A stretch of 64,000 nt of DNA, from NCBI RefSeq assembly GCF_000143845.1, contig NC_014363.1:1535186-1599185 (forward strand). The letters are read 5' to 3'. The position numbers and the translations under genes are program-made. This stretch comes from Olsenella uli DSM 7084 (lineage in GTDB: Bacteria > Actinomycetota > Coriobacteriia > Coriobacteriales > Atopobiaceae). This document shows, piece by piece, positions 9,898 to 49,050 of this stretch. Numbering within the stretch: position 1 is the first letter of the stretch; the number at the start of each line of letters is the position of its first letter. The notes beneath the pieces are model-generated. The model saw nothing but the letters and a program-made list of their open reading frames with translations. It was not told the origin of the DNA and did not search any database.

Positions 9898-9983
9898 GTG
9901 GCTCCTCCCACAGGAATCTGCGGCGACGCGGGGGTTGCCCCCACGCAAGCGTCGATATGTCGACATCTTATTTTAAAAGCGTA

Positions 9984-10012
9984 ATTATATTGGCTTTTTG
10001 CATATATTGAAA
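9984..10012 (-). promoter_or_regulatory. Sigma-70-type promoter of the amino-acid importer operon
   Basis: Read on the minus strand, TTTCAA (10007-10012) and a perfect TATAAT (9984-9989) are spaced by exactly 17 bp in an AT-rich stretch. They lie about 87 bp upstream of the lipoprotein start. This separates the importer operon from glnA, which ends at 10114 on the same strand. Confidence 0.75.
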
Positions 10013-10113
10013 CATATACGCGACCACTTCCTGAAAGGAGCGCCAGAGAAGGCGACGTGCACGGGCGTGCGCCGCCTTGGCATGCCACGGGCGGTCCAGA
10101 GTCCACGCGCCGG

Positions 10114-21230: not shown

Positions 21231-22142
21231 CTAGCCCTTCCGGCATGCCTTGCGCCAAGCGCTCGGAGGACAGCCCATGCAGTCGCAGAAGGCTCGGGAG
21301 AACTTGGAGGGGTTGGAGTAGCCTACGGCCAAGGCGATCTCGGAAATGGGCCTTGAGGTCCCCAGCAGCAGGTCGGCAGCCCGATGCATGCGGTACGAGC
21401 GATACCATGCGTAGACGGGAATGCCAAAGGTCTCGCGGAACGACTCCTTGAGCACGGTCGCAGAGACGCCGCAGCGCCCGGCAAGGGAGGGTATGGTGAG
21501 CGCTTGGGCCACGTTGCGCACCATCTCGCCCTGCGCGGCATGTGCGATCTGCTCGTGCGTGCGTCGCGCACCCGCGACGCCAGGCGCGCCGACGCCGCCA
21601 TCTCTTGACCCACCGTACGTGGGAACGGACGAGAGGTCCCGCAGGAGCTCGACGAGCTTGATCTTGAGGTATCCCAGCGCCCCATGCCGCGGGACGCAGC
21701 AGAGCTCGCCAAGCACGCGCATCAGCTCCAGGCAGTCTCCCAGGAGACGAAACGATGGGCCCTGGCTGACAAGGAGACGCAGGGCCTCCGTGTCGATCTC
21801 GAAGTCCTCGAACGTCACCAGGGTCTGACGGGGGAGGCGATGCGGGTCCAGAAGCACGAACGCCCCTGAGAAGGGCCCTGCGGGAGACACGCCCCCCTCA
21901 CGTCCGCCACCCCTTGGGCACAAAAAGCCGTCACCGGTCGGGACGTGTCGGGAAAGGCCCCGGACGGACACTTCGCATGACCCGCTGCGGCAATAGCCGA
22001 CAAGGAGCTGACCCTCGCGCCAGCAGGGTGACATGCGGACGTCGCGCACCGTCGAGTGCACGTCGGCCAGGACGAGCGCGACGCCTTCGATCGGCTCGAG
22101 CGAGACGCCGCAAGGCAGCTTGCCGAGGAGACCGTCACCCAT
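21231..22142 (-). CDS. AraC-family transcriptional regulator
   Basis: A 303-residue regulator. The C-terminal AraC DNA-binding domain (about 205-300) has both helix-turn-helix units: IPSLAGRCGVSATVLKESFRETFGIPVYAWYRSYRM and ISEIALAVGYSNPSKFSRAFCDCMGCPPSAWRK. The N-terminal part (about 1-190) is of the PchR-like type with a Cys-Arg-rich centre. Such regulators often respond to metal-chelators or host signals. The start is the first ATG after an in-frame TAG; the ribosome site is weak. It lies between the metal ATPase operon and feoB, both on the same strand, and either could be its target. Confidence 0.85.
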   Translation of the reverse strand: MGDGLLGKLPCGVSLEPIEGVALVLADVHSTVRDVRMSPCWREGQLLVGYCRSGSCEVSVRGLSRHVPTGDGFLCPRGGGREGGVSPAGPFSGAFVLLDPHRLPRQTLVTFEDFEIDTEALRLLVSQGPSFRLLGDCLELMRVLGELCCVPRHGALGYLKIKLVELLRDLSSVPTYGGSRDGGVGAPGVAGARRTHEQIAHAAQGEMVRNVAQALTIPSLAGRCGVSATVLKESFRETFGIPVYAWYRSYRMHRAADLLLGTSRPISEIALAVGYSNPSKFSRAFCDCMGCPPSAWRKACRKG

Positions 22143-22294
22143 CTAGCGGCCGATCCCTTGGGTGGCACGCGGCAGGAGGCCCCGAACCGCAACGGCGGCG
22201 GGCGAGACGGCGGCCGCCAGAAGCACTGCGTCAAAGGCGCTCATGTCCCTCTCCCCCCAAGCTAAGACCAACCACATCTGACAACGAAACGGTA

Positions 22295-22332
22295 GGGACG
22301 CACCACCCAAGGCCTCCTGGGCGGTGCGTCCC
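22295..22332. terminator. Hairpin downstream of feoB
   Basis: The 10-bp arms GGGACGCACC and GGTGCGTCCC are extended inward by CCCA/TGGG pairing. It lies about 100 bp past the feoB stop on the minus strand. There is no strong T-run, so termination is inferred from stem strength and position. No gene is seen in 22143-22429. Confidence 0.55.
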
Positions 22333-22429
22333 ACGACTCACGGATCACAGACCATATCGTGGCTCGTGACCGACCCCCTTCGCCCGGAGGGGCACGACGG
22401 GGTCTAGGCCAATCGCCACGCGCTGGCAG

Positions 22430-25090
22430 CTACGCCGCGTCATCGACGAGGCTGCCGAGGATCTTCTCGTCCCTCTTGTCCCACTTGGGCGTGGGACGGA
22501 AGAGCTGGAAGAGCATGGCGGCGAGCAGGACGAAGGCCACGACGGTCCAGACGCCGAAGTTACCGAAGGCGATCAGCTCGTAGAACTGGTTGATGAACAG
22601 GCCGATGACCCAACCGAAGACGCATTCGTAGATGATGGCGAAGGCCGTCCAGGCGGCGGAGTCCATCTGCTTGCGAATGGTGCCCATCGCCGCGAAGCAG
22701 GGCGCGCAGAGCATGTTGAAGGCCACGAAGGCGCACATGGCACCGACGTGCAGCGTGCCCGCGACCGTGAACATGCCGGCAAAGCCCTGCCACATGGAGA
22801 CCGAGTTCTCGGTCGCATCGCCCAAGCCATAGAGGACACCGAAGGTGGAGACCAGGTTCTCCTTGGCTATGAGGGCCGAGATGGTCGAGGCGGTCGCCTG
22901 CCAGTTACCGAAGCCGAGCGGGGCGAAGAGGAAGCTCAGGGCGCCGCCGACGCCCGCGAGGATGGAGTAGTCCATGTAGCCCTCGGGCACGCCCTCGGCG
23001 GAGGGCAAAAAGCCGAAGGTGTTGGAGCCGCCCTCCCAGCCGGAGATGCCAAAGTTGGAAAGTGCCCAGATGCCCACGGCTGCGGCGAAGATGATGGTGC
23101 CGGCCTTCTTGACGTAGGCGGAGACGCGCTCCCACACATGGAGCGCCCAGGAGCGGACGGCCGGGAAGTGGTAGTCGGGCAGCTCCATGACGAACGGCAC
23201 GGGCTCGCCCGAGAAGGGCTTGGTCTTCTTGAGCATGACGGCGGAGACGATGATGGCGACGATGCCCATGAGATAGAACATGGGGGCGACCCACCACATG
23301 CCGGAGCCGCCGGCGAGGACGCCCATGACCAGCGCGATGATGGGCAGCTTCGCGGAGCACGGGATCATGGTGGTGAGCATGGCGGTCATGCGGCGGTCAC
23401 GCTCGTTCTCGATGGTCTTGGTGGCGAGCACGCCCGGGACGCCGCAGCCCGACGAGACGATCATGGGGATGAAGGACTTGCCCGAGAGGCCGAAGCGACG
23501 GAAGACGCGGTCCATCACGAAGGCGACACGGGACATGTAGCCGCAGTCCTCGAGGAAGCAGAGCATCACGAAGAGGACGAAGATCTGCGGGATGAAGCCG
23601 AGGACGGAGCCCACGCCCCCGATGATGCCGTCGACCACGAGGGACTTTACGACGGGCGAGGCGCCCGCGGCCTCAAGGGCGTTGGTCGCGGCGTTGGGGA
23701 TGGAGTCGACGAAGCCGTCGTAGTCATGCTGGTCGGGCTTGGCGGCGGCAACCGCCGCCGCGAAGTCAGCCGACGTGACGCGGTCGATGACCTGGAGCTC
23801 CTGGTCACTGTCTAGGACGGGCTCGCCGTCTGCGGTCTCGGAGGTGATGGGCTCGTCGTCGGTGTCGAGGTAGTTGCCATCCTCGTCGTGCACGGGGACG
23901 TCGGTCGCGACGACGCCTGCCTGGGCGGCCGCAGCCTCGAAGTCGGCGACGGTCGCCTCGTCCTCGGCAGTGGGCTCCTCGGCGGCAACGGCATCGGCGA
24001 CGCCCTCCGTGTCGACGCCGGCCTCATCGGCGGCCGCGATATAACCGTCGATCTGGTCCGAGTAGTGATGCGACGCGTACTCGTCAGACGCCTCGCCGTA
24101 GGCCTGCTCGCTGGCGCCGTTCACGAAGAAGCCGTCGGAGAACAGGTTGTCGTTGACCCAGTCGGTCGCCGGAGTGCCCACGGCGACGAGCGCGATCCAG
24201 TAGACGAGGACCATGGCGGCCGCGAAGATGGGCAGTCCCAGCCAGCGGTTGGTGACGACCTTGTCGATCTTCTGGGAGCGGGTCAGCTTCTTGGGGGCCT
24301 TCTGGACGCAGGCATCCATGACCGTCGCGATCCAGTCGTAGCGATCGGAGGTGATGATGGACTCCGAGTCGTCGTCACGGTCCCTCTCGACCGCGGCGAT
24401 GAGGGGCTCGATGGCGGCGAGCGTCTCCTGGGAGAGGGAGAGGGGGGCGATGGCATCGGCATCACGCTCGAAGACCTTGATGGAGTACCAGCGGGAGAGC
24501 CCTGCGGGACAGCTGGACGAGATGCGCTCGGCGATCCTTGCGAGCACGTCCTCGACGTCGTCCGAGAAGCACCTGACCCCCTGGGGGGCCACGTTCTTCT
24601 CGCCAGCGGAGATGGCCTCGCCGACCAGCTTGTCGAGGTTCTGGTTGCGCAGGGCCGAGACCTCGACCACGGGAACGCCGAGCATCTTGGAGATGGCCGC
24701 CACATCGATGACGTCGCCGCGCTCCTTGAGCAGGTCGCACATGTTGAGGCCCACGACCACGGGACGGCCGGCCTCGAGCACCTGCGTGGTGAGGTAGAGG
24801 TTGCGCTCGAGGTTGGTGACGTCGATCAGGTTGATGACGGCGTCGGGGCGGTCGTTGACGACGTAGTCGCGGGAGACGACCTCCTCGGGCGAGTAGGGCG
24901 AGAGCGAGTATATGCCGGGAAGGTCGACGAAGGTGACGTCATGGTTGGCCTTCCAGGTCGCCATCTTCTTCTCGACGGTGACGCCCGGCCAGTTGCCAAC
25001 GTAGCCGTTGGAGCCGGTGAGCTCGTTGAACAGCGTGGTCTTGCCACAGTTCGGGTTGCCGGCGAGGGCAATGTTGATCTTGTCAGACAA
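22430..25090 (-). CDS. feoB: Ferrous iron transporter FeoB with large acidic outer insertion
   Basis: An 886-residue G-protein-coupled Fe(II) permease. The N-terminal GTPase has G1 GNPNCGKTT (11-19), the switch region VGNWPGVTVEKK, G3 DLPGIYSLSPYS and G4 NMCD. The membrane part has gate motifs such as SSGCGVPGV and IPCSAKLPI. Between the first and second transmembrane helices (about residues 315-475) is an acidic stretch much longer than usual, rich in Glu, Asp and Ala, which should face outward. The best start is TTG 25090, with AGGAAGG seven bases before it, giving MSDKINIALAGNPNCGKTT; ATG 25114 is an alternative. It follows feoA with a 122-bp gap holding a likely terminator and a GGTAACT element. 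Confidence 0.95.
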   Translation of the reverse strand: MSDKINIALAGNPNCGKTTLFNELTGSNGYVGNWPGVTVEKKMATWKANHDVTFVDLPGIYSLSPYSPEEVVSRDYVVNDRPDAVINLIDVTNLERNLYLTTQVLEAGRPVVVGLNMCDLLKERGDVIDVAAISKMLGVPVVEVSALRNQNLDKLVGEAISAGEKNVAPQGVRCFSDDVEDVLARIAERISSSCPAGLSRWYSIKVFERDADAIAPLSLSQETLAAIEPLIAAVERDRDDDSESIITSDRYDWIATVMDACVQKAPKKLTRSQKIDKVVTNRWLGLPIFAAAMVLVYWIALVAVGTPATDWVNDNLFSDGFFVNGASEQAYGEASDEYASHHYSDQIDGYIAAADEAGVDTEGVADAVAAEEPTAEDEATVADFEAAAAQAGVVATDVPVHDEDGNYLDTDDEPITSETADGEPVLDSDQELQVIDRVTSADFAAAVAAAKPDQHDYDGFVDSIPNAATNALEAAGASPVVKSLVVDGIIGGVGSVLGFIPQIFVLFVMLCFLEDCGYMSRVAFVMDRVFRRFGLSGKSFIPMIVSSGCGVPGVLATKTIENERDRRMTAMLTTMIPCSAKLPIIALVMGVLAGGSGMWWVAPMFYLMGIVAIIVSAVMLKKTKPFSGEPVPFVMELPDYHFPAVRSWALHVWERVSAYVKKAGTIIFAAAVGIWALSNFGISGWEGGSNTFGFLPSAEGVPEGYMDYSILAGVGGALSFLFAPLGFGNWQATASTISALIAKENLVSTFGVLYGLGDATENSVSMWQGFAGMFTVAGTLHVGAMCAFVAFNMLCAPCFAAMGTIRKQMDSAAWTAFAIIYECVFGWVIGLFINQFYELIAFGNFGVWTVVAFVLLAAMLFQLFRPTPKWDKRDEKILGSLVDDAA

Positions 25091-34176: not shown

Positions 34177-36018
34177 CTACTCGAGCTCGGACGAGCCCGT
34201 GTAGAGCTGCCAGTACTCGCCGCGCTGCGCCAACAGCTCCTCGTGCGTGCCGCGCTCGATGATGCGGCCGTGCTCCAGCACCATGATCGCATCGGCATTG
34301 CGCACGGTCGACAGGCGGTGCGCGATGACGAAGACGGTCCTCCCACGCATGAGGCCGTCCATGCCCCTCTCGATCAGGGCTTCGGTGCGGGTGTCGATGC
34401 TGCTCGTGGCCTCGTCCAGAATGAGGACCGGCGGGTCGGCGACCGCCGCACGGGCGATGGCGATCAGCTGGCGCTGGCCCTGGCTGAGGTTGGCTCCGTC
34501 TGCGGCCACCACCGTGTCGTAGCCCTTGGGCAGACGACTGATGAACGAGTCCGCGTTGGCGATGCGTGCCGCGTGCCTGACCTCCTCGTCGGTCGCATCG
34601 AGCCTGCCGAAGCGGATGTTGTCGGCGATCGTGCCGCTGAAGAGGTGCGTGTCCTGCAGCACGATGCCCAATGAGCGGCGCAGGCTTGCCTTGCTGATGT
34701 CGCGCACGTCGATGCCGTCATAGGTGATGACGCCGGAGCGCACGTCATAGAAGCGGTTGATGAGGTTCGTGATCGTGGTCTTTCCCGCACCGGTCGATCC
34801 CACGAACGCGATCTTCTGGCCCGGCTTGGCAAAGAGCGAGAGGCCCTCGAGCACCGTCTGCCCCTCGTCGTAGCCAAAGGTGACGTCGTAGAAGCGCACG
34901 TCGCCCGCAAGGGGGACGTTCTCGCCCAGCTCGGGGAAGTGCCAGCCCCAACCGGCGGCCCCTGCGGCCATGCGGTCGGCATCCAGCTCGTCGTCGCGCA
35001 CGAGCTGGATGGTGCCCCGGTCCAGCTCGCCCTCGCAGTCGAGGACCGCAAAGACCCTCTCGGCGCCCGCCAATGCGGTAAGCAGGAAGTTGCCCTGCTG
35101 CGTCAGCTGGTTGATGGGCATGGCTGCCTGACGCACGAAGACCAGGTATGACGCCAGGGCCCCCACGTCCAGCGTCGATCCCATCGCCAGAAGGGCACCC
35201 ACCATGGTGACGATGGCGATGTTGACGTACGAGACGGCGACGGTCACGGGGATCATCGTGGAGGCGTAGCCCTGGGCCATGGCACCGCTCTCGCGCATGA
35301 GCCCGTTCAGGAGGTCGAAGCCCTGCAGGCTCTGGGCCTCGTGGTTGAAGGTCTTGACGACCTTCTGGCCGCTCATCATCTCCTCCACGTAGCCGTCCAG
35401 CTCGCCCAGGGCCTGCTGCTGAGCCGCAAAGTAGTGCCCACTGCGATGGCCCGAGTAGCGCACGTAGAGCGCTATCGCCGCGTCGCAGGCCAGCGTGATG
35501 AGCGTAAGGCGCCAGTCCAGCACCACGAGCAGCGTGAAGGTACCCACCGTCTGGATGAGTGCCTGCACCGCGTTGGCGAAGCTGTTGTTGAGCGCCTCCG
35601 AGATGGTGTCGACGTCGTTGGTGAAGTAGCTCATGATGTCGCCATTGCGCATGCGGTCGAAGAACGACAGCGGCAGGCTCTCTATGTGGGCGAGAAGGTC
35701 ACGCCTGATGTCGTAGACGACCCTCTGCGCCGCACGGACCATGGTCTGGGTGTAACCCCAGGCAGCCAGGGAACCCAGCGCGTAGATGGCCGCCGTGAGG
35801 ATGACCAGGCGGACGAATCCCTGGTAGTCACCTGCGCCCACCGCGTTGACGACGGGCTTTATCATGTAGGTCCCCAGAAGTGCCGCAAGCCCGCTCGCCG
35901 TGACGAGCACCGCCACGGCCAGGAGCTGCACGCGCGCGTGGCCCATGTAGGCCAGAAGCGCCCGCAGCGTGTGGCGCAAGTCCCTCGGACGCGAGGGCGC
36001 CCCTCCCCTAGCAGCCAT
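34177..36018 (-). CDS. ABC exporter half-transporter, consensus ATPase site (partner 1)
   Basis: A 613-residue half-transporter: six transmembrane helices (about 35-340), then an ATPase domain with Walker A GSTGAGKTT, signature LSQGQRQLIAIARA, Walker B VLILDEATSSID and H-loop IAHRLST. All catalytic residues are present, including the Glu after Walker B. A segment of about 35 residues (RDDELDADRMAAGAAGWGWHF) is inserted between membrane and ATPase domains. The start ATG lies 11 bp inside the upstream partner gene, so the pair is co-translated. Heterodimeric exporters of this type move drugs, lipids or peptides. Confidence 0.93.
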   Translation of the reverse strand: MAARGGAPSRPRDLRHTLRALLAYMGHARVQLLAVAVLVTASGLAALLGTYMIKPVVNAVGAGDYQGFVRLVILTAAIYALGSLAAWGYTQTMVRAAQRVVYDIRRDLLAHIESLPLSFFDRMRNGDIMSYFTNDVDTISEALNNSFANAVQALIQTVGTFTLLVVLDWRLTLITLACDAAIALYVRYSGHRSGHYFAAQQQALGELDGYVEEMMSGQKVVKTFNHEAQSLQGFDLLNGLMRESGAMAQGYASTMIPVTVAVSYVNIAIVTMVGALLAMGSTLDVGALASYLVFVRQAAMPINQLTQQGNFLLTALAGAERVFAVLDCEGELDRGTIQLVRDDELDADRMAAGAAGWGWHFPELGENVPLAGDVRFYDVTFGYDEGQTVLEGLSLFAKPGQKIAFVGSTGAGKTTITNLINRFYDVRSGVITYDGIDVRDISKASLRRSLGIVLQDTHLFSGTIADNIRFGRLDATDEEVRHAARIANADSFISRLPKGYDTVVAADGANLSQGQRQLIAIARAAVADPPVLILDEATSSIDTRTEALIERGMDGLMRGRTVFVIAHRLSTVRNADAIMVLEHGRIIERGTHEELLAQRGEYWQLYTGSSELE

Positions 36019-37759
36019 CCACGACCCTCTCCCCGTGGATGCCCGATCCTATCTGAGACTCATAGAGCTCCTGATAGATGGGATCGCTTGCAAGCAGTTC
36101 GGCATGCGTGCCCACGGCGTGGACGCACCCGTCGTCCAGGATCACAATCTGGTCGCAGTCCATGACCGAGTTCACGCGCTGCGCCACGGTGATCTTCGTG
36201 ACGTCCGCAAGGCCCGCGAGCCCGGCACGGATCCTAGCATCGGTCGCCATGTCGACGGCGCTCAGCGAGTCGTCGAAGACCAGCACCTTGGGACGCTTGA
36301 GCAGGGTCCGCGCTATGGAGAGGCGCTGCCTCTGACCACCCGAGACGTTGTCGCCGCCCTGCCCCAGGTCCGCGTCGAGGCCACCTATGCGTTCGAGGAA
36401 CTCGTCCGCACAGGCGATGCGGCAGGCCTCGAGCAGCTCCGCGTCCGTGGCGTCGGGATTGCCCCAGCGCAGGTTGTCGCGGACCGTCCCCGAGAAGAGC
36501 ACGCTCCTCTGCAGGACGACGCCCACGGCATCGCGCAGGGCCGCGAGGTCGTAGTCGCGCACGTCTCGGCCACCCACGCGCACGGAGCCCGAGCTGACGT
36601 CGTACAGGCGTGCGACGAGCTGCACGAGGGACGACTTTCCCGAGCCCGTGGCCCCCAGCACGCCAATCGTGGACCCGGCGGGGAAGCTGAGGCTTATGTC
36701 CTCGAGAACGTCCTTTCGTGCGTCGGCATGATACTTGAAACTGACGTGGTCGAAGACGACCGAGCCGTCCGCGACGGTGGTGGCGGCACCCTCGGCCGAG
36801 CTGATCGCGGGCCTCTCGTCCAGGACCTCGCGCACGCGACGGATGCTCGTGAGGGCACGGGCCAGGAGCAGGAAGACGCCGGAGATCATCATCAGCGAGT
36901 TCATGATCTGCAGCACGTAGCTCATGAAGCCCGTGAGCGTGCCCACCTGCAGCTCGCCGACCAGGATCAGGTTGCCGCCAATCCAGAGGATGGACACGCA
37001 GGTCACGTACATCGACACCTGGAAGACGGGGGTGTTGAGCACGGCACCGCCAAAGGTGCGCGTCGCCGTGGTGGAGTAGGCCCTGTTGACCTCGTCGAAT
37101 CGCGCCTGCGTCCAGTCCTCGCGCACGAAGGCCTTGATGGCGCGGATGGCACGCAGGTCCTCCTGCAGAGCGTCATTGAGCCTGTCCATCACGCCTTGCA
37201 GCACTGCGTAGAGCGGGCCCACGTGACGCACGATGAGGAAGAGCACCACCGCAAGAAACGGCAGGACGACGCAGAAGATCACGGCGAGGCGAGCGCTCAT
37301 CACGAACGAGAGCACCAGGCCCATCACGAGCATGGACGGACCGCGCAGCATGGGTCGAAAGCCCATGACCAAGGCGTTCTGGATCACCGTGACGTCGGTG
37401 GTCATGCGCGTCACGAGGGACGAGGACTCGAAGGAGTCCAGGTTGGAGAAGGCGAAGTCCTGGATGTGGGCAAACTCGGCGCGGCGCAGGTTGGCGCCCA
37501 GACCCATGGCAGCACGGGCCGAGAGGCGCGCGTAGCCGCCGCCCAGGGCAAGCGCCGCCAGCGCGCAGCCCAGCATGGCCGCCCCGCGGGTCCAGACGAT
37601 GGAGGCGTCACCTGTCGCGAGCCCGTCATCGATGATGGAGGCCATCAGGAGCGGGATCAGCAGCTCGAGCACCGACTCGAAGAAGACGCAGATGCCCGCA
37701 CCCACAAAGTCACGCCGATAGGGGCCAAAGCTTCGCGCGATGAACGCAATGTCACCCAC
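36008..37759 (-). CDS. ABC exporter half-transporter with degenerate ATPase residues (partner 2)
   Basis: A 583-residue half-transporter with six transmembrane helices and an ATPase domain. Walker A is GATGSGKSS and the signature VSGGQRQRLSIARTLL is intact, but the catalytic Glu is Asp (LVFDDSLSAVD) and the H-loop His is Gln (ITVAQRVNS). Such changes are the mark of the degenerate half in asymmetric heterodimers like BmrCD or TM287/288. The start is GTG 37759, nine bases after GGAGG. It is the first gene of the pair; a repeated TAAYCGATTT element (37834-37856) lies just upstream. Confidence 0.93.
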   Translation of the reverse strand: MGDIAFIARSFGPYRRDFVGAGICVFFESVLELLIPLLMASIIDDGLATGDASIVWTRGAAMLGCALAALALGGGYARLSARAAMGLGANLRRAEFAHIQDFAFSNLDSFESSSLVTRMTTDVTVIQNALVMGFRPMLRGPSMLVMGLVLSFVMSARLAVIFCVVLPFLAVVLFLIVRHVGPLYAVLQGVMDRLNDALQEDLRAIRAIKAFVREDWTQARFDEVNRAYSTTATRTFGGAVLNTPVFQVSMYVTCVSILWIGGNLILVGELQVGTLTGFMSYVLQIMNSLMMISGVFLLLARALTSIRRVREVLDERPAISSAEGAATTVADGSVVFDHVSFKYHADARKDVLEDISLSFPAGSTIGVLGATGSGKSSLVQLVARLYDVSSGSVRVGGRDVRDYDLAALRDAVGVVLQRSVLFSGTVRDNLRWGNPDATDAELLEACRIACADEFLERIGGLDADLGQGGDNVSGGQRQRLSIARTLLKRPKVLVFDDSLSAVDMATDARIRAGLAGLADVTKITVAQRVNSVMDCDQIVILDDGCVHAVGTHAELLASDPIYQELYESQIGSGIHGERVVDGC

Positions 37760-37833
37760 GGACGGCCACCTCCTCGCACCGAGCCAGGACGTTGCTCTCG
37801 GGCGGAGGCGCTCCTTGCTACAGGGGATTTCTT

Positions 37834-37856
37834 TAACCGATTTTTCTAATCGATTT
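37834..37856. promoter_or_regulatory. Direct-repeat element upstream of the ABC exporter pair
   Basis: TAACCGATTT (37834-37843) and TAATCGATTT (37847-37856) form a direct repeat with 13-bp period in an AT-rich stretch between the divergent exporter pair and XRE regulator. Two such half sites could bind a dimeric regulator. A -10 box TACAAT (37931-37936) serves the plus-strand gene. Confidence 0.4.
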
Positions 37857-37970
37857 CTTTGTCACCCAAACGATATGCCTGTTGGCTGGCATGTCAACTC
37901 ATGTGGTGATGCGGTGTACAGAGACTGCCGTACAATCGAAGAGAGCTTTCGTTGATAGGCGGGAGGATCC

Positions 37971-38945
37971 ATGGACGCAAAGTCGCTCAGCAGCAGGATC
38001 TCGAGTCATCGACGCGTACTTGGAATGACACAGGCTGCCTTGGCACAGATGCTTGGCGTAAGTGACAAAGCTGTAAGTAGGTGGGAACGAGGAGTAGGGT
38101 TCCCCGACGTTACATTACTTGAACCCTTAGCAACAGCCTTACAAATTGATTTGAGCGAATTAGTTATCGGCCCATGCGAGGTTGGCGCCTGCACCGAGGA
38201 TGCCCACACTGAAACGGCTGATGCCGAGGAATCTAACGATAAGGGTGCCAGCGTCGAGGAAATCTCGAAAGACACTCCTCTTAATCAACCATACGTAGAC
38301 AGAGTGACACAGTCAGGCATAGCTTTGCGAACTGATAGGCTATCGAAAACATCAACAGCACCAGAAAAGAGACCGACGCTAGGTAAAAGACGACGTCTCG
38401 TCAAAGCTGCTGCATATATTGCAGCAGCTACGTTTACGGCATTAATTGCAGCGTCTGCTGCCATCAGCTTGAGATCTCCATCAGAGGAGAATGTAATCGC
38501 ATCAAACACGACAGCGGGAGGTTTCATAAACTCCGAGGGGCATGACGGCGTACCGTCAGCAAATACCAGCTCAAGCAACAACTCAAACGATAAATATGTA
38601 TCCGAAGAAGACGGGGAGCTTGCACGTGAACAACAGGAATGGCGTGTTGCAAATCATATAGACACGAGCGAAGACCTAGAGTGGGATGCCGTCACACGAG
38701 ATGGTATAACCGCTTTTGCTGCAGAGGTTAAGGTTCGTAATGTCTGTCAGACATCGTGTGATAAAACATTCGATCCTGACCTAGTTTCTGGCATAACAAA
38801 GCTGCGCCTCTCTGAGGACAAAGCGCAGCTTCAAATCGAAATTCAGGGAACATATATCGATGGCTCACACGGTACCTGCACGGCGATAGTAGTGGGTAAC
38901 GAAGCAGAGCCTTACGTGCAGGAGCTACAAATCAGACATGTATAA
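37971..38945 (+). CDS. XRE-family regulator with transmembrane helix and outer domain
   Basis: A 324-residue protein. An N-terminal Cro/C1-type helix-turn-helix (about 7-62) with MTQAALAQMLGVSDKAVSRWERG is followed by an acidic linker, a basic cluster GKRRRLVK, one transmembrane helix (about 143-167) and an outward domain of about 155 residues with a Cys pair (VCQTSCDK) and a third Cys. The layout suggests direct signalling across the membrane, sensing something outside or the state of an exported product. Base composition is clearly AT-richer than the flanks. The start follows GGGAGGATCC. Next on the other strand are a secreted peptide and a transporter, with which it likely forms a unit. 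Confidence 0.85.
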   Translation: MDAKSLSSRISSHRRVLGMTQAALAQMLGVSDKAVSRWERGVGFPDVTLLEPLATALQIDLSELVIGPCEVGACTEDAHTETADAEESNDKGASVEEISKDTPLNQPYVDRVTQSGIALRTDRLSKTSTAPEKRPTLGKRRRLVKAAAYIAAATFTALIAASAAISLRSPSEENVIASNTTAGGFINSEGHDGVPSANTSSSNNSNDKYVSEEDGELAREQQEWRVANHIDTSEDLEWDAVTRDGITAFAAEVKVRNVCQTSCDKTFDPDLVSGITKLRLSEDKAQLQIEIQGTYIDGSHGTCTAIVVGNEAEPYVQELQIRHV

Positions 38946-38957
38946 GAATAGGTATAT

Positions 38958-39299
38958 CTACCATACCTTGTAGTTACACCTATACCTTGAAATATTTCCA
39001 TAGTCACCTTTGGGCGAATATCCCATGTATGATTCAACGAACGAATCACTGAGGCGTGCATATGAGTGTGTATAAGTAAGTTTTTTATATGTCTTTAGAA
39101 ACCCCGATACGTAAGATCCACTCGCGCTAGATGGCTTGAAGTTGCAGTAGGTATCAAGAACGTCTGCCATCGGAGCTCTAAGAATAGGCGACGCAGCATA
39201 AGCCGTGCTTGGAATAGAGAGCGCTACGCTGGCGGCAACCAAGAACGCTCCCCAAATTACTACAAACCTACGAGATATACACTTTGTTGATGACATCAT
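38958..39299 (-). CDS. Small secreted two-cysteine peptide, bacteriocin-like candidate
   Basis: A 113-residue precursor not recognised from any family. A Sec signal peptide (basic CISRR, then VVIWGAFLVAASVALS) has a likely cleavage site after STAYA (residue 35). The mature part of about 78 residues has just two cysteines, Cys52 and Cys108, each in a near-identical setting (YCNFK and RCNYK), with many Tyr, Ser and Gly and a C-terminal KVW. A single disulfide could close the chain into a loop. It is followed 13 bp later by a fused ABC transporter and preceded by a convergent membrane-bound regulator; size, signal and context resemble lactococcin 972-type bacteriocin systems, but no sequence match is claimed. 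Confidence 0.72.
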   Translation of the reverse strand: MMSSTKCISRRFVVIWGAFLVAASVALSIPSTAYAASPILRAPMADVLDTYCNFKPSSASGSYVSGFLKTYKKLTYTHSYARLSDSFVESYMGYSPKGDYGNISRYRCNYKVW

Positions 39300-39312
39300 T
39301 TTTTACCTCTTC

Positions 39313-41226
39313 TCAACTTTTTTCAGTTTCCGCACTAGCTGCTTGTCCCTCCTCTCTCATCCCGTATGTCTCCTCAAACACGATGTGTGAAGGGTTGTCC
39401 CGCCTCACGAGCACCGGGCCTTCATGAACGAAGAGAATGAGCTGGTCGCAAAGCTCGTCCACGTTATCAAGCAAGTGCGAGGACATAACAATACAGGTGC
39501 CATTGGCACGTAGTTGCCGGATGAGGCTCGAGAGCAGAAAAGTCTTTTGTGGGTCGAGTGCATTCATGGGCTCATCAAGCAGCAGATAGCGTACCTGCGC
39601 CATACGCGCCATGGCAATCGTCACCTGCTGGCACATGCCCTGAGAGAGCTTCGTGACACGACGGTCGAGAAAGCCCGAGATCCCGCACTCGCGAGCAACA
39701 TCATCGACATCCAGCGACGATTGCCAGGCGCTTCTCGCAAGCTCGAGGTGCTCCCGTACCGTTGCCCCTTCGCAGAGCATACCGCCCTCACCGGGAACAT
39801 AGAGTGCCATGCGCCTGAATGCCGCATCCTCACAAGAGATACCATTGGCGGTTGTCGCACCGCGCCGCAGGCAGATTCTCTCGCCCACAAGAGCGCGCAT
39901 GAGGGTGGTCTTGCCGCAACCGTTCGGCGCGATAATGCCGATTGACGAGCCTTCTGCTAGTACTAGGTTCACGCTGGGAAAGAGCATCCTGCCACGATAC
40001 CCTACGGCTATACCATCTGCCACAAGCGCGTGTTGTGCAGCAACTTTTGCATGGATTCCGGATTGCGCATGTGCTGCTGCGTGGGCATTCTCGCTGATAG
40101 TTCGTTGCACCCGAATGCGAGACATCGCGCCGCGCACTACGAGTACAACCACAGAAATAAGGACCGTACACGCTACCAGCACCACGAGCGCATCAAAGAT
40201 CGTCAGTCTCTCCAACGGCATGCTGTCGTGACCGATTGCGTACATTGGGCGCCCCACAATATCCGAAATACGCAGGTATGTGATAGGCAGCCAACGAATA
40301 CTGCCCGCAAGAGGCGAGGTGGTACCAAACAGATCAGGAACCATGGGCGATAGCGCAAGGACGCCCGCCAACGCAGCCCCCACAACAGGCCTTCTTGTAG
40401 CAACAAGGGCTGCGCAGGACACAGAGCTCAAGAAAAGGGTCGACGCTGCCACGAGCACAAGAATCTTAAGCGCCATAGCACCTAGGGTCGTGGTGACGAT
40501 CTCTCCTCCCTGAAACAGTGCGATGGGATACTCGGGACTGCCAAGCCCATTGCGCAGCGCAAAAGAAACAAGACAGGGCAGCAGGGAAATTAAAGCCACC
40601 ATGATGGCGACGAGGGACGAGGCTAACCACGCATCGAAGAAGTAGCGCCACTCAGGCAAAGGAAGCCGACCCGCCAGACGGTCCTTGTCTATCGCCCTTG
40701 CGCAGAGCGCTGCCGTCGCGATGGCAGGGACAAGCCACAATGTACCCGGTACCCACGAGAAAGCATCAACGAAGTAATAAAGTGCCGTCTCTTCTTGCTC
40801 TGAACCGAACACCTGCACACCATCGTACGAACTAAGTAGGTGAGCGTAAGTGGAGAGAAACTCCATATCCTGCCTGTCAGCCGAGAGGTAACCTGCGTCA
40901 TACTCCTTCAGCTGCACGTCATAGTAACTGGCGAAGTAGCTTAGACGTTCCTGGTCACTTTGCGCGGAAACCACACTGCGCAGCAGCTCACGCTCCTTGT
41001 TGGTATATGCCAGCAGTTCTGCGGGAGCCGTATCGTAGGCTCCAGAAGACACACCTTCATCAAGAATTTGCAGGGTTTCTCGCGCGCTCGCACTATCAAA
41101 GTTGTAACTCATCCCACTTGCGTCGAACATGAGGGGCATGGCAAACGCGAGTGCAAGGATAATCGCCAGCGCGTAAGGAATGGGATTTCTCAGCAGGATG
41201 CGAACGAGGAACCTGGTACGACTCAT
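39313..41226 (-). CDS. ABC-2-like transporter with permease and ATPase fused
   Basis: A 637-residue protein. The N-terminal half has one helix (about 13-33), an outer domain of about 120 residues, then a block of five or six helices (about 150-365). The C-terminal half is an ATPase with Walker A APNGCGKTT, signature LSQGMCQQV, Walker B LLLDEPMNALD and HLLDNVDEL. The NPA order (membrane then ATPase) in one chain is unusual for ABC-2 systems, which normally use separate genes. It starts at the ATG after GGGAGG; an upstream in-frame start is poorly spaced. Transcription runs from this gene toward the peptide gene 13 bp downstream, so they likely share a message: export of, or immunity to, the peptide. 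Confidence 0.82.
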   Translation of the reverse strand: MSRTRFLVRILLRNPIPYALAIILALAFAMPLMFDASGMSYNFDSASARETLQILDEGVSSGAYDTAPAELLAYTNKERELLRSVVSAQSDQERLSYFASYYDVQLKEYDAGYLSADRQDMEFLSTYAHLLSSYDGVQVFGSEQEETALYYFVDAFSWVPGTLWLVPAIATAALCARAIDKDRLAGRLPLPEWRYFFDAWLASSLVAIMVALISLLPCLVSFALRNGLGSPEYPIALFQGGEIVTTTLGAMALKILVLVAASTLFLSSVSCAALVATRRPVVGAALAGVLALSPMVPDLFGTTSPLAGSIRWLPITYLRISDIVGRPMYAIGHDSMPLERLTIFDALVVLVACTVLISVVVLVVRGAMSRIRVQRTISENAHAAAHAQSGIHAKVAAQHALVADGIAVGYRGRMLFPSVNLVLAEGSSIGIIAPNGCGKTTLMRALVGERICLRRGATTANGISCEDAAFRRMALYVPGEGGMLCEGATVREHLELARSAWQSSLDVDDVARECGISGFLDRRVTKLSQGMCQQVTIAMARMAQVRYLLLDEPMNALDPQKTFLLSSLIRQLRANGTCIVMSSHLLDNVDELCDQLILFVHEGPVLVRRDNPSHIVFEETYGMREEGQAASAETEKS

Positions 41227-41453
41227 AGCTGCCTCCCTCATCGTAACTAGGGCGAGCGTAGTACGACGAGCCTATGGCGGCAATCTACGATCCGTTGACG
41301 GGATAACGGCTATCATCTATGGGTCGTTACCTGGTCATTCTCAGATGCGTTGAGCGTATGCGAATGACGCGCAGGTAGTGCGAGCGGTGCATGAGAAGCG
41401 CACGGGCAGTGCGCGAGAAACACGCGGGCGGTGCGTCCAAAACTGTTTTGCAA

Positions 41454-41579
41454 CTTTCCGGGCGTTTGCCCAGGAAAGATTTTGCCCATTGGAGCAACTT
41501 CCTGCGGGAAGTTGCTCGTTTTACAAAGAATGACTGGTAGACGGTGGTGCGAGTTTTACAACTTTCTGCAGAAAGTTGT
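41454..41579. repeat. Three related hairpins with CAACTTTC-type arms
   Basis: Hairpin 1 (about 41454-41478) pairs CTTTCC with GGAAAG; hairpin 2 (41492-41517) pairs GAGCAACTTCC with GGAAGTTGCTC around TGCG; hairpin 3 (41558-41579) is the perfect palindrome ACAACTTTCTGCAGAAAGTTGT (22 nt, arms ACAACTTTCTG and CAGAAAGTTGT). All share a CAACTTYC core. They occupy the gap between the fused ABC gene start and the aspS stop. The rest of 41227-41684 has GC-rich partial repeats and no gene. Confidence 0.75.
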
Positions 41580-41684
41580 TCGCTTGGGAGGCGCGGACAT
41601 GGAGCATGCGGATGGTGGCGCGCGGGGTGCGGCTAAAATCCGAACCCCGGCACGCACCCCCACGCGCTACGCTCTTCTCCCCTG

Positions 41685-43454
41685 CTACAGCAAGCGGAGC
41701 GAGACCTCCTTGAGCTGGCGACCGGACACCTCGCCCGGCGCGTCGCTCATCAGGTCCGAGCCGCTCGAGGTCTTGGGGAACGCCATGACCTCGCGGATGG
41801 AGTCCGATCCCGCAAGCAGCATGCACACGCGATCGAGTCCCAGCGCGAAGCCGCCCATGGGGGGCGCACCGAACTTCAGGGCCTCCATGAGGAAGCCGAA
41901 CTGCTCCCGTGCGCGCTCCTCGGTGAAGCCCAGCTTCTCCAGGATGCGCATCTGCAGGTCGGCATCGTGGATGCGCATGCCGCCGCCGCCCGCCTCGAAG
42001 CCGTCCATCACGAAGTCGTAGGTGTGAGAGCCCACGGAGAGCGGGTCTGCGTCCAGGAGCTCGACGTCCGCCTCCATCGGCTGGGTGAAGGGCTGGTGCT
42101 CGGCGGCATAGGCACCGCGATCCTCGTCCCAGTGGAAGAGCGGGAAGTCCACCACCCACAGGAAGTCGTGCCCCTCCCGCACGAGACCGAGCGCATCGGC
42201 CATGTGGCTGCGCATGCCGCCCAGGATCTCGTCGGCCGCAAGGCGGCCCTCGACGGCAAACATCACCAGGTCACCTGGCTCGACGTCCATCTCGGCCCTC
42301 AGGGCCGCCATCTCCTCGTCCGAGAAGAACTTGACGATGGGGCTCGTGACGCTGCCGTCCTCTCTGAAGGCGATGTAGGCCAGGCCCCTCGCGCCGAAGG
42401 CAGACGCGACGTCCGCCAGCTTGTCGATCTGGGCGCGGGGCCACTTGCCGGCGCCCTTTGCGTTGATGGCCTTGACGTAGGTCTTGGGATCGGTGGCGGC
42501 GCTGGAGAAGAGCTTGAACTTGGACGACGAGAAGATCTGCGTCACGTCATGGAGCTCCATGCCGAAGCGGGTGTCGGGCTTGTCGGTGCCGTAGGTGTCC
42601 ATGGCCTCCCAGTACGGCAGGCGGCGCAGGGGCAGCTGCATCTGGACGCCCACCTTGGAGAAGGCCTCGGCGAGGACGTCCTCGAGCGCGGCCATGACGT
42701 CGTCCTGCTCGACGAAGCTCATCTCGACGTCCACCTGCGTGAACTCGGGCTGTCGGTCGGCCCTCAGGTCCTCGTCGCGGAAGCACTTGGCGACCTGGTA
42801 GTAGCGCTCGACGCCACCCACCATGAGCAGCTGCTTGAGCAGCTGCGGAGACTGCGGCAGCGCATAGAAGTGACCTGGCTGCGTGCGGCTCGGCACCAGG
42901 AAGTCGCGGGCGCCCTCGGGCGTGGACTTGAAGAGGGCTGGCGTCTCCACCTCCATGAACGCACGGTCGTGGAGGGCCTGGCGGATGGCGAAGGTGAAGT
43001 CGGAGCGCAGCCTGAGGTTCGCCATCATCTTGGGGCGACGAATGTCCAGATAGCGATAGCGAAGACGCACGTCCTCGGCGGCGTCCACATGGTCCTCGAT
43101 CTGGAAGGCGGGGGTCCTTGCGGTGTTGAGCACCTCGATCTCCGAGACAAGCACCTCGATCTGACCCGTGGCGAGCTTTTCGTTGGCCTGCCCCTCGGGG
43201 CGCTCGCGCACGGTGCCCACGACCTTGATGGGCCACTCCGAGCGGATGGTCTCCGCCGTGTGGAACGCGATGCCACCGGAATGCTCGGGGTCGAAGGAGA
43301 CCTGCGTGACGCCCGCACGGTCGCGCAGGTCGACGAAGATCAGGCCACCGTGGTCGCGGCGATGCCATACCCAACCGGTAAGTGCAACCTCGCGCCCGAT
43401 GTCCTCGCGTCGCAGCTCGCCACAGGTATGGGTATGCATGCTGTGGGAATCCAT
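41685..43454 (-). CDS. aspS: Aspartyl-tRNA synthetase
   Basis: A 589-residue class II synthetase of the bacterial type, which charges tRNA-Asp with aspartate. An N-terminal OB-fold (about 10-110, GWVWHRRDHGGLIFVDLRDR) precedes motif 1, motif 2 (FRDEDLRADRQPEFTQVDVEMSF), the GAD insertion (about 290-420) and motif 3 (GAPPMGGFALGLDRV). The start ATG follows GGGAGG. A candidate promoter lies at 43549-43554. It is a single gene, bounded downstream by the hairpin cluster at 41454-41579. Confidence 0.96.
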   Translation of the reverse strand: MDSHSMHTHTCGELRREDIGREVALTGWVWHRRDHGGLIFVDLRDRAGVTQVSFDPEHSGGIAFHTAETIRSEWPIKVVGTVRERPEGQANEKLATGQIEVLVSEIEVLNTARTPAFQIEDHVDAAEDVRLRYRYLDIRRPKMMANLRLRSDFTFAIRQALHDRAFMEVETPALFKSTPEGARDFLVPSRTQPGHFYALPQSPQLLKQLLMVGGVERYYQVAKCFRDEDLRADRQPEFTQVDVEMSFVEQDDVMAALEDVLAEAFSKVGVQMQLPLRRLPYWEAMDTYGTDKPDTRFGMELHDVTQIFSSSKFKLFSSAATDPKTYVKAINAKGAGKWPRAQIDKLADVASAFGARGLAYIAFREDGSVTSPIVKFFSDEEMAALRAEMDVEPGDLVMFAVEGRLAADEILGGMRSHMADALGLVREGHDFLWVVDFPLFHWDEDRGAYAAEHQPFTQPMEADVELLDADPLSVGSHTYDFVMDGFEAGGGGMRIHDADLQMRILEKLGFTEERAREQFGFLMEALKFGAPPMGGFALGLDRVCMLLAGSDSIREVMAFPKTSSGSDLMSDAPGEVSGRQLKEVSLRLL

Positions 43455-43548
43455 GTGAATCCTCCCGTCTCTGCCGCCCCGTGCCGTGCGGGCGGGCTCC
43501 CAGCAGACAGCGCGCCGGCGTAGACGGCGTCGGCGCACAGGGTTTCAC

Positions 43549-47463: not shown

Positions 47464-48114
47464 ATGGCATACAGGGCGGCCATCTTTGACCTTGATGGGA
47501 CCCTGCTTGACACCCTCGACGACCTCTGGCACGCCGTGAACTTCGCCCTCGGCCAGGAAGGCGAGCCCACACGCAGCCGCGACGAGGTACGGGCGTTTCT
47601 GGGCAACGGCGTCGCGCGGCTCATGCAGCTCAGCATGCCCGAGGGCAGCGACCGCGAGCGCACGGCACAGGCACTCGCCACCTTCAGGGAGTACTACGCG
47701 CACCACAACGCCGAGTTCACCGCTCCCTACCCTCAGATTCCCGAGCTGTTGCACGTGCTGGCAGGAGAGGGCGTGCTACGCGCCGTGGTCTCCAACAAGC
47801 CCGACGCGTACGTGCAGACCCTCGTGGCAACGCACTTCAAGGGGCTCTTCAACGCCGCCGTAGGCGAGCGGGCGGGCGTCCGTCGCAAGCCGGCGCCAGA
47901 CGCTCTGCTCGCCGTGATGGACGAGCTGCGCTGCGCGCCTGACAACACGGTCTACGTGGGCGACTCCGAGGTGGACCTCCAGACGGCCAAGGCCGCTGGC
48001 GTCGGGTGCATTGCCGTGAGCTGGGGGTTCAGGGACCGAAGTTTCCTGGTAGGCCAGGGTGCCACGTCCATTGCAGACTCCACCGAGGAGCTCGCCGAGA
48101 AGATCTTGCTCTAG
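47464..48114 (+). CDS. HAD-family phosphatase, phosphoglycolate phosphatase-like
   Basis: A 216-residue haloacid dehalogenase-type hydrolase. Motif I is IFDLDGTLLDTLDDL at the N-terminus, motif II VVSNKP, motif III Lys in RRKPAPDALL, and motif IV YVGDSEVDLQTAKAAG. A helical cap after motif I identifies the Gph/beta-phosphoglucomutase subgroup; phosphoglycolate is the likeliest substrate. The start follows AGGAGG. The 154-bp gap from the MacB permease has two copies of TGGCAGGCACTTCG (about 47371-47402). An inverted repeat CAAGTGG/CCACTTG (48181-48208) follows the gene. Confidence 0.87.
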   Translation: MAYRAAIFDLDGTLLDTLDDLWHAVNFALGQEGEPTRSRDEVRAFLGNGVARLMQLSMPEGSDRERTAQALATFREYYAHHNAEFTAPYPQIPELLHVLAGEGVLRAVVSNKPDAYVQTLVATHFKGLFNAAVGERAGVRRKPAPDALLAVMDELRCAPDNTVYVGDSEVDLQTAKAAGVGCIAVSWGFRDRSFLVGQGATSIADSTEELAEKILL

Positions 48115-48325
48115 CCGCTCTAGCCCCACCGGGCACGCCGATCCCAGACGGAAACGCTTAGCCACAACTGGCATCCGCGTCAAGTGGTCCCCATCCACAT
48201 GCCACTTGGGCGCGCTTGCCTAATGGAACCATCATTGATGAATAGTCCCAGGGGACGGGCGGTAGAATCTTGCCATCGGAAGCGTTTTCCTTCTTCAAAG
48301 GGACCTCTTCGGGAAAGGACGCATC

Positions 48326-48634
48326 ATGGGTAAGAAGGCAGCTGAGGCACTTGAGATAAATTACGATGACCTGGCCGACTACCTGCACAAGAACCACTCG
48401 GTCTACATGCGCGTCGACAACGACGTTTACTACCTCACCGACGTCAACTACGAAGCTTGGCGTGCGCAGGACACCAGCCTGCGTAACTCGAAGAATCACT
48501 TCGTCGACTGCAGCGACCTGGTTCCCACGGTCGACGAGTTCCTCGCGCTTCCGTTCGTGAACGGCCGCACCATCAAGGATTCCTTCTCTCACGCAACGTT
48601 CTACGAGAGCGTGAAGGGTGTCAAGCAGCCGTAG
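48326..48634 (+). CDS. Small conserved-looking protein of unknown function
   Basis: A 102-residue soluble protein, not recognised. It starts with a Lys/Ala-rich helix, then LEINYDDLADYLHKNHSVYMRVDNDVYYL, a segment that reads like alternating strands with Asp, Asn and Tyr, and a C-terminal helix region DEFLALPFVNGRTIKDSF. It has a single Cys and no membrane segment. AAAGGA precedes the ATG at normal distance, codon use is like the flanks, and a strong hairpin follows the gene at 48683-48708, all of which argue that it is real. Its context does not indicate a role. Confidence 0.72.
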   Translation: MGKKAAEALEINYDDLADYLHKNHSVYMRVDNDVYYLTDVNYEAWRAQDTSLRNSKNHFVDCSDLVPTVDEFLALPFVNGRTIKDSFSHATFYESVKGVKQP

Positions 48635-48682
48635 GTTTGTCACAGCGCAGCGAATGTGGCGCAGCGAGCACCGCTGCAACGT

Positions 48683-48708
48683 GCCCGGTCGGTCGGTTCC
48701 GACCGGGC
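48683..48708 (+). terminator. Terminator hairpin after the small unknown gene
   Basis: Perfect 10-bp arms GCCCGGTCGG and CCGACCGGGC enclose TCGGTT, followed by GCTATATTA. It lies about 50 bp past the stop of the gene ending at 48634. The T-run is weak, but the stem is strong. Confidence 0.6.
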
Positions 48709-48757
48709 GCTATATTACCGCACGATGGCAAAGTTCGGTGGCAGGCGCACGTTATCA

Positions 48758-48795
48758 GCCCGCCAGGTCAAGTGATCTCAGCTCGGCTGGCGGGC
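48758..48795. repeat. Inverted repeat in the 48.6-49.15 kb gap
   Basis: GCCCGCCAG (48758-48766) and CTGGCGGGC (48787-48795) pair across a 20-nt loop. Short open frames through 48618-48956 cross this and the terminator and are not considered genes. Confidence 0.55.
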
Positions 48796-48994
48796 CGCCG
48801 TATCCAGACGCGTCCAGATGCGGCGGAATCCCATCCCGAAAAACTGTATGCAACAAAATCGGCGGTTATGTGTGGATCAGATCCGTTTCACGGGCGCTTC
48901 CGCATCATCCCAAGATGACCTTCGATAGAACCGATTCTTATATCCGCTGGTCATAGCTATATAAATTAATTAATTTCTTGGAAACGGTGTGAGG

Positions 48995-49050
48995 GTGGAT
49001 GACACTGACACCCGCAAGGCACACATAACTGTCAATTTTGTGTCATCCAC
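48995..49050. repeat. Inverted repeat with 11-bp arms
   Basis: GTGGATGACAC (48995-49005) and GTGTCATCCAC (49040-49050) are perfect inverse copies with a 34-nt spacer, following an AT-rich tract (48956-48978). It could be the edge of a small decayed element or a stem in a transcript; no coding sequence is within. Confidence 0.6.

What the first reader, a model, noticed from the sequence alone, without database searches (positions are those of the whole stretch)
37971..41226. AT-rich island: membrane-bound XRE regulator, secreted two-cysteine peptide, fused ABC transporter
The three genes differ in base composition from the GC-rich surroundings, pointing to transfer. The peptide (38958-39299) has a Sec signal, a mature part of about 78 residues, and two cysteines in near-identical surroundings (YCNFK and RCNYK) suggesting a closed loop. 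The transporter gene is 13 bp away on the same strand and fuses permease and ATPase in one chain; the convergent regulator has an outer sensor domain. Together they read as a self-contained bacteriocin-like or signalling system not known to me.
Basis: partly seen in the sequence, partly recalled or inferred. Interest (0 to 1): 0.75.

Follow-up and report, generated by a model that had tools for sequence, protein, structure and literature searches.

The report
Secreted peptide with dedicated ABC transporter
A small acquired gene island in an oral/gut-type bacterium encodes an unannotated secreted peptide next to its own membrane pump, and relatives of the pair recur, some on plasmids, in its bacterial order, which suggests an undescribed type of antibacterial peptide with self-protection; nothing has been tested in the laboratory.

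Summary
A 3.3-kb island (52% GC against 66% around it) encodes a secreted 113-residue peptide, a fused ABC transporter 13 bp upstream of it, and a convergent membrane-anchored XRE regulator. Three relatives keep the flanking genes aspS and the exporter pair next to each other without these three genes, so the island is an insertion. The peptide belongs to a family that Pfam, NCBIfam, the PDB and PADLOC do not hold. It was found in three families of Coriobacteriales, on a Collinsella plasmid, and in no phage. Of 24 non-redundant peptides at 20 loci, 15 lie within 166 bp of this transporter family, always on the same strand. The other five loci carry peptide pairs without it. The regulator is not a fixed partner: the same slot holds LuxR-type membrane regulators, two-component systems or HTH/DUF2975-like pairs. 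The two-cysteine loop is not conserved. Best reading, inferred and not shown: a Sec-secreted, beta-rich bacteriocin-like peptide with an ABC-2 pump for self-protection. It resembles the lactococcin 972 group in gene layout but fails the sequence tests for membership. Rivals are a signalling peptide, or an accessory protein of a detoxification pump.

The parts
38958..39299 (-). secreted peptide gene, 113 aa, signal peptide plus about 78 aa mature part
   Evidence: ORF and signal peptide read from the sequence; family profile with relatives
39313..41226 (-). fused ABC transporter, 637 aa: N-terminal membrane half with a large outer loop after the first TM, C-terminal ATPase
   Evidence: PF00005 at residues 418-555; permease family alignment; adjacency to peptides at 15 of 20 peptide loci
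37971..38945 (+). membrane-anchored XRE regulator, 324 aa, convergent with the peptide gene
   Evidence: HTH_3 at 17-64; homologues match only the HTH part
39195..39299 (-). signal peptide coding part (residues 1-35, cleavage predicted after AYA)
   Evidence: read from the sequence; contains SRRFVV, a twin-arginine-like motif
37760..41684 (.). inserted AT-rich segment between exporter gene pair (34177-37759) and aspS (41685-43538)
   Evidence: composition; in L195, L198 and L200 the exporter genes and aspS are adjacent without these three genes

Best explanation
This is a mobile antagonism cassette. The peptide is exported by the general secretion route (signal peptide present: shown from sequence), folds into a small beta-rich domain (low-confidence prediction) and acts on the envelope of neighbouring bacteria (inferred). 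The co-transcribed ABC-2-type pump, whose permease has a large outer domain, removes the peptide from the producer's own membrane or carries it away, and so gives immunity (inferred from linkage and from known bacteriocin loci). The membrane-anchored XRE protein switches the cassette in response to an outside cue (inferred). In other loci a LuxR-type membrane regulator, a two-component system or an HTH/DUF2975-like pair takes that role.
For: 15 of 20 peptide loci have this ABC family at -20 to +166 bp, same strand every time; peptide-bearing permeases cluster on the ABC tree, 5 changes against 8.7 shuffled, 2 of 500 shuffles as low. Several divergent paralogues per genome. Two peptide loci on a 27-kb Collinsella plasmid with a relaxase gene. 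Decayed copies are common: an internal stop in L032 and stops reported inside other copies, no signal peptide in L094, and a deletion of both peptides with the 4-TM neighbour left intact in G058. Top NCBIfam model for the ATPase is the lantibiotic-protection ABC, though far below its cut-off. Predicted secondary structure is all-beta. Same gene content of secreted peptide, membrane protein and ATPase as on pBL1, where those genes are read as immunity genes (PMC4055356; not proven, PMC11796350).
Against: No activity data. The ABC family also occurs, with regulators, without any secreted peptide beside it (18 loci), so its basic job need not be immunity to this peptide. Five loci carry peptides without the ABC. 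Peptides are not more divergent than their permeases. Peptide and permease distances co-vary only because of a few close pairs. No sequence or fold match to any bacteriocin. After the G058 deletion both the 4-TM gene and the peptide remnant still show low dN/dS, so selective retention of immunity is not shown.
Confidence: 0.5

Rival explanations
1. The peptide is an accessory outer protein of a detoxification pump: ABC plus regulator detect and expel foreign antimicrobial peptides, and the secreted protein binds or shields against them, as LanI proteins do in lantibiotic immunity.
For: ABC plus LuxR-type or two-component regulator occurs on its own in many genomes, so the pump-regulator pair may be the stable core. 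Most regulators seen are membrane-coupled. ATPase resembles the lantibiotic-protection type.
Against: Peptides also occur as tandem pairs without any pump of this family. They lack a lipobox and would diffuse away, whereas LanI proteins are mostly lipoproteins (own knowledge).
Confidence: 0.2
2. The peptide is a signal. It is secreted, accumulates with cell density, is sensed by the outer domain of the membrane regulator or kinase, and the pump adjusts its level.
For: A membrane-coupled regulator lies beside about half of the ABC-linked loci; in L097 and L102 the order is ABC, peptide, response regulator, kinase on one strand.
Against: Regulators are of at least four unrelated kinds, so there is no conserved receptor to match a conserved peptide family. 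The mature part is 70-100 residues, with signal peptide and no processing peptidase beside it, which is long for a pheromone. Some loci have no recognised regulator nearby.
Confidence: 0.15
3. A small secreted adhesin or host-directed effector carried with an unrelated transporter.
For: Oral and gut niche; secreted beta-rich domain.
Against: Linkage to one transporter family in 15 of 20 loci, on the same strand every time, is not explained; plasmid carriage and tandem paralogues fit antagonism better.
Confidence: 0.1

Closest known systems
Lactococcin 972 group (TIGR01653/PF09683 peptide, TIGR01654 membrane protein, ABC ATPase)
   Same: Sec-type secreted unmodified peptide of about 66-80 residues, aromatic C-terminus, beta-rich (lactococcin 972 is a beta-sandwich), next to a large membrane protein and an ABC ATPase, sometimes on plasmids
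   Different: No sequence match of peptide or permease; the profile comparison aligns only 13 signal-peptide residues; permease is a different kind and is often fused to its ATPase; restricted to Coriobacteriales in these searches
Lantibiotic-protection ABC transporters (LanFEG / TIGR03740)
   Same: ABC-2-like pump with an ATPase of similar sequence beside a secreted peptide
   Different: ATPase scores 81 bits against a cut-off of 310; the window permease matches no Pfam family; no modification enzymes at the window locus
Two-peptide bacteriocins with a small multi-TM immunity protein
   Same: Five loci carry two adjacent peptide genes, and most have a small 4-TM protein beside them
   Different: The two peptides are homologous to each other and Sec-secreted; the 4-TM proteins of different loci are mostly unrelated in sequence

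Membership tests
Lactococcin 972 family | Peptide matches PF09683 / TIGR01653 | tested here: not met
   No family for P0001; no A5 member matches; 0 of 149 class genomes over cut-off; hhalign against four lactococcin 972 peptides aligns only signal peptides. Positive control pBL1 peptide scores 1.4e-31.
Lactococcin 972 family | Neighbouring membrane protein matches TIGR01654 | tested here: not met
   No TIGR01654 match among the best shown for P0002 or for three other permeases; direct BLASTP of the pBL1 protein against P0002 finds nothing (E 0.55); pBL1 control 4e-212
Lactococcin 972 family | Beta-sandwich fold | tested here: inconclusive
   All-beta model but mean pLDDT 62; best PDB match E 0.96 and 2lgn not among the 50 matches shown
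Lactococcin 972 family | Lipid II binding, septum inhibition | not testable with these tools
   needs experiment
Lantibiotic-protection ABC (LanFEG, TIGR03740) | ATPase above the curated cut-off | tested here: not met
   81 bits against 309.75
Lantibiotic-protection ABC (LanFEG, TIGR03740) | Lanthipeptide precursor and modification genes at the locus | tested here: not met
   No such gene recognised among window ORFs 33-46 kb by reading; not profile-searched one by one
ABC-2 type transporters (general) | ABC ATPase plus ABC-2-like permease | tested here: inconclusive
   PF00005 in P0002 is clear; one relative's permease matches ABC2_membrane_3 at 5e-4, below the curated cut-off; the window permease itself has no Pfam match
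Sec-secreted bacteriocin (functional class) | Signal peptide and short mature part | tested here: met
   read from sequence
Sec-secreted bacteriocin (functional class) | Killing activity and cognate immunity | not testable with these tools
   needs experiment

The most novel reading that the evidence does not exclude
A new structural class of unmodified, Sec-secreted bacteriocins specific to Coriobacteriales (Olsenella, Collinsella and kin), with its own family of self-protection ABC transporters and interchangeable membrane-bound regulators, spread by plasmids and chromosomal islands.
Probability: 0.45. Interest if true: 0.65.

Novelty: new variant of a known kind. Interest (0 to 1): 0.5.

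Why it matters
I found no paper describing a bacteriocin of Coriobacteriia in this library, although they are common oral and gut bacteria. If the reading is right, it gives a family profile to find such loci in Olsenella and Collinsella, two plasmid-borne examples to test, and a clear question: does the pump protect its owner from the peptide? It also shows one transporter family gaining and losing a secreted partner, useful for asking how immunity pumps and toxins are paired.

Tried and rejected
Phage origin: no match in 50,697 phage records or in five scans of viral contigs. Lactococcin 972 membership: rejected on sequence. Known family or PDB relative: none. Conserved disulfide: rejected, cysteines vary. 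Conserved regulator: rejected. Co-evolution of peptide and permease: apparent (r 0.52) but vanishes when a few close pairs are dropped. Hidden peptides beside the peptide-less transporters: none found. Selection on the 4-TM protein after the G058 deletion: inconclusive. Flanking direct repeats or tRNA at the island: none convincing. Structure of the regulator's outer domain: too poor to use. Scan of the named-genome collection gave only Olsenella sp. KGMB02461. A first version of the peptide-permease test paired two loci with the wrong gene copies and was redone.

Full report
What is there. The window lies at 1,535,186-1,599,185 of a 2,051,896-base single-contig genome. From memory, that size is the one of Olsenella uli DSM 7084; the tools did not name it. 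Peptide: 38958-39299 minus, 113 residues, signal peptide ending AYA, mature part 78 residues, cysteines 52 and 108. Transporter: 39313-41226 minus, 637 residues, 13 bp upstream of the peptide gene. Regulator: 37971-38945 plus, 12 bp from the peptide's stop. GC of the three genes together is 52.3% against 65.6% (sd 1.6) for other stretches of that length, and GC3 is 43-60% against 88-90% in the flanking genes.

It is an insertion. On one side lies a pair of ABC exporter genes (34177-37759), on the other aspS (41685-43538). In L195, L198 and L200, from two other genera, aspS and the exporter pair are adjacent, with about 0.1 to 0.8 kb between them and none of the three genes. No flanking repeat, tRNA or integrase marks the edges.

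The peptide family. A search of 140 genomes of the same family gave a handful of true relatives. A profile of eight then found 28 of 398 genomes of the class, in three families of Coriobacteriales coded f1, f3 and f9. No genome outside the class matched in a phylum-wide sample of 296, where the single new match (G155, same order) was too weak to count. Named members are Olsenella sp. KGMB02461 and Collinsella aerofaciens. The common pattern is V-x-D-T-Y..F, then T-Y-K-x-L/I-x-Y/F, then an aromatic C-terminus, often C-N-Y-x-W. No member has a credible match in Pfam or NCBIfam; the few weak matches are to single members. There is nothing in the PDB by sequence or by fold of a low-confidence all-beta model. 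Phages and viral contigs hold none.

The cysteines are not a family feature. The second is common but often absent; the first moves or is missing; two members have none after the signal peptide. A bond between C52 and C108 in the window peptide is possible but untested.

Transporter linkage. I collected 34 peptide genes, which collapse to 24 at 80% identity, at 20 loci. Fifteen loci have a relative of the window transporter at -20 to +166 bp, always on the same strand. The loci were chosen by the peptide profile alone, so this count is not biased by the transporter. In at least eight of them permease and ATPase are separate genes, so the fusion is incidental. The permeases share TM1, an outer domain of about 120 residues and further membrane helices, with a conserved RNGLGDPxYPV-like motif. 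They form a family that Pfam does not hold.

The other arrangement. Five loci (L031, L032, L034, L092/L093, L095) carry two adjacent peptide genes (the second broken in L032) and no such transporter; most have a small 4-TM protein and L031 has a two-component system. In genome G058 a deletion has removed the first peptide and most of the second and left the 4-TM gene intact. This is what loss of a toxin with its immunity gene kept would look like. But both the 4-TM gene and the peptide remnant still show low dN/dS (0.33 and 0.11), so the deletion may simply be recent.

Regulators. The window's XRE protein has homologues only over its HTH part in 298 class genomes. Elsewhere the neighbours are LuxR-type proteins with many membrane helices (L030, L036, L094, L104), two-component systems (L031, L097, L102), or HTH and DUF2975-like proteins, the DUF2975 scores below cut-off (L033, L099). 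I first took the divergent 794-residue protein of L102 for a LuxR type; Pfam shows it is a potassium transporter. Most of these regulators are membrane-coupled, which suggests that an outside cue matters, but no one regulator belongs to the peptide.

Transporter without peptide. Eighteen further loci carry the transporter, often with the same kinds of regulator, and no secreted small protein within 400 bp on the same strand (the one candidate, in L114, is the broken-off N-terminus of the transporter itself). On a permease tree the presence of a peptide is clustered, needing 5 changes against 8.7 when shuffled, with 2 of 500 shuffles as low. The tree has long branches and few strong forks. The peptide is thus a recurrent partner of part of a larger transporter family.

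Mobility. Collinsella aerofaciens TSDC17.2-1.1 plasmid 7 (27 kb, relaxase and ParA genes) carries both arrangements: transporter plus peptide, and a tandem pair. A third locus of that strain is on a 0.9-Mb record labelled plasmid 6.

How it probably works. Shown: secretion signal, co-linearity with a pump, insertion, plasmid carriage, repeated decay. Inferred: the mature peptide harms neighbours, the pump protects the producer, the regulator times expression. Confidence 0.5. The best precedent for layout is lactococcin 972, a Sec-secreted beta-sandwich peptide that binds lipid II, encoded before a membrane protein and an ATPase read as immunity genes (PMC4055356, PMC11796350). PMC11796350 itself notes that the roles of those two genes have not been verified for any such locus. 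The window system is not a member of that family: peptide and membrane protein both fail the models, while the pBL1 controls pass.

Limits. The test of peptide-permease co-variation depended on a few close pairs. The named-genome collection could be scanned once and gave one locus, so names of most loci are unknown. Gene calls in the fetched loci are mechanical ORF picks.

Noticed in passing
window 39245-39299: The peptide's signal sequence holds SRRFVV, a twin-arginine-like motif; one relative (L129) has TRRALVV. Most members lack it, so Sec remains the default.
   Followed up: no
window 34177-37759: Adjacent pair of half-size ABC exporters, in conserved order in several Atopobiaceae genomes and next to aspS in three of them.
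   Followed up: partly
L166 (NZ_OY725718.1) 8065-10099 and 21829-22667: A 27-kb Collinsella aerofaciens plasmid with a relaxase gene carries two different loci of this peptide family.
   Followed up: partly
L108 7270-7887 against L034 7172-8513: Deletion in G058 joins the start codon region of the first peptide to the 3' end of the second and leaves the 4-TM gene intact.
   Followed up: yes
L100, L101, L109: Two neighbouring units in Collinsella: fused ABC plus peptide beside peptide plus a 746-762-residue permease with about 13 TM and a separate ATPase.
   Followed up: partly
window 48001-49000: Second GC dip (56.8%) with a small ORF of 102 residues (48326-48634 plus) between a phosphatase-like gene and an iron-sulfur hydrogenase-like gene.
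   Followed up: no
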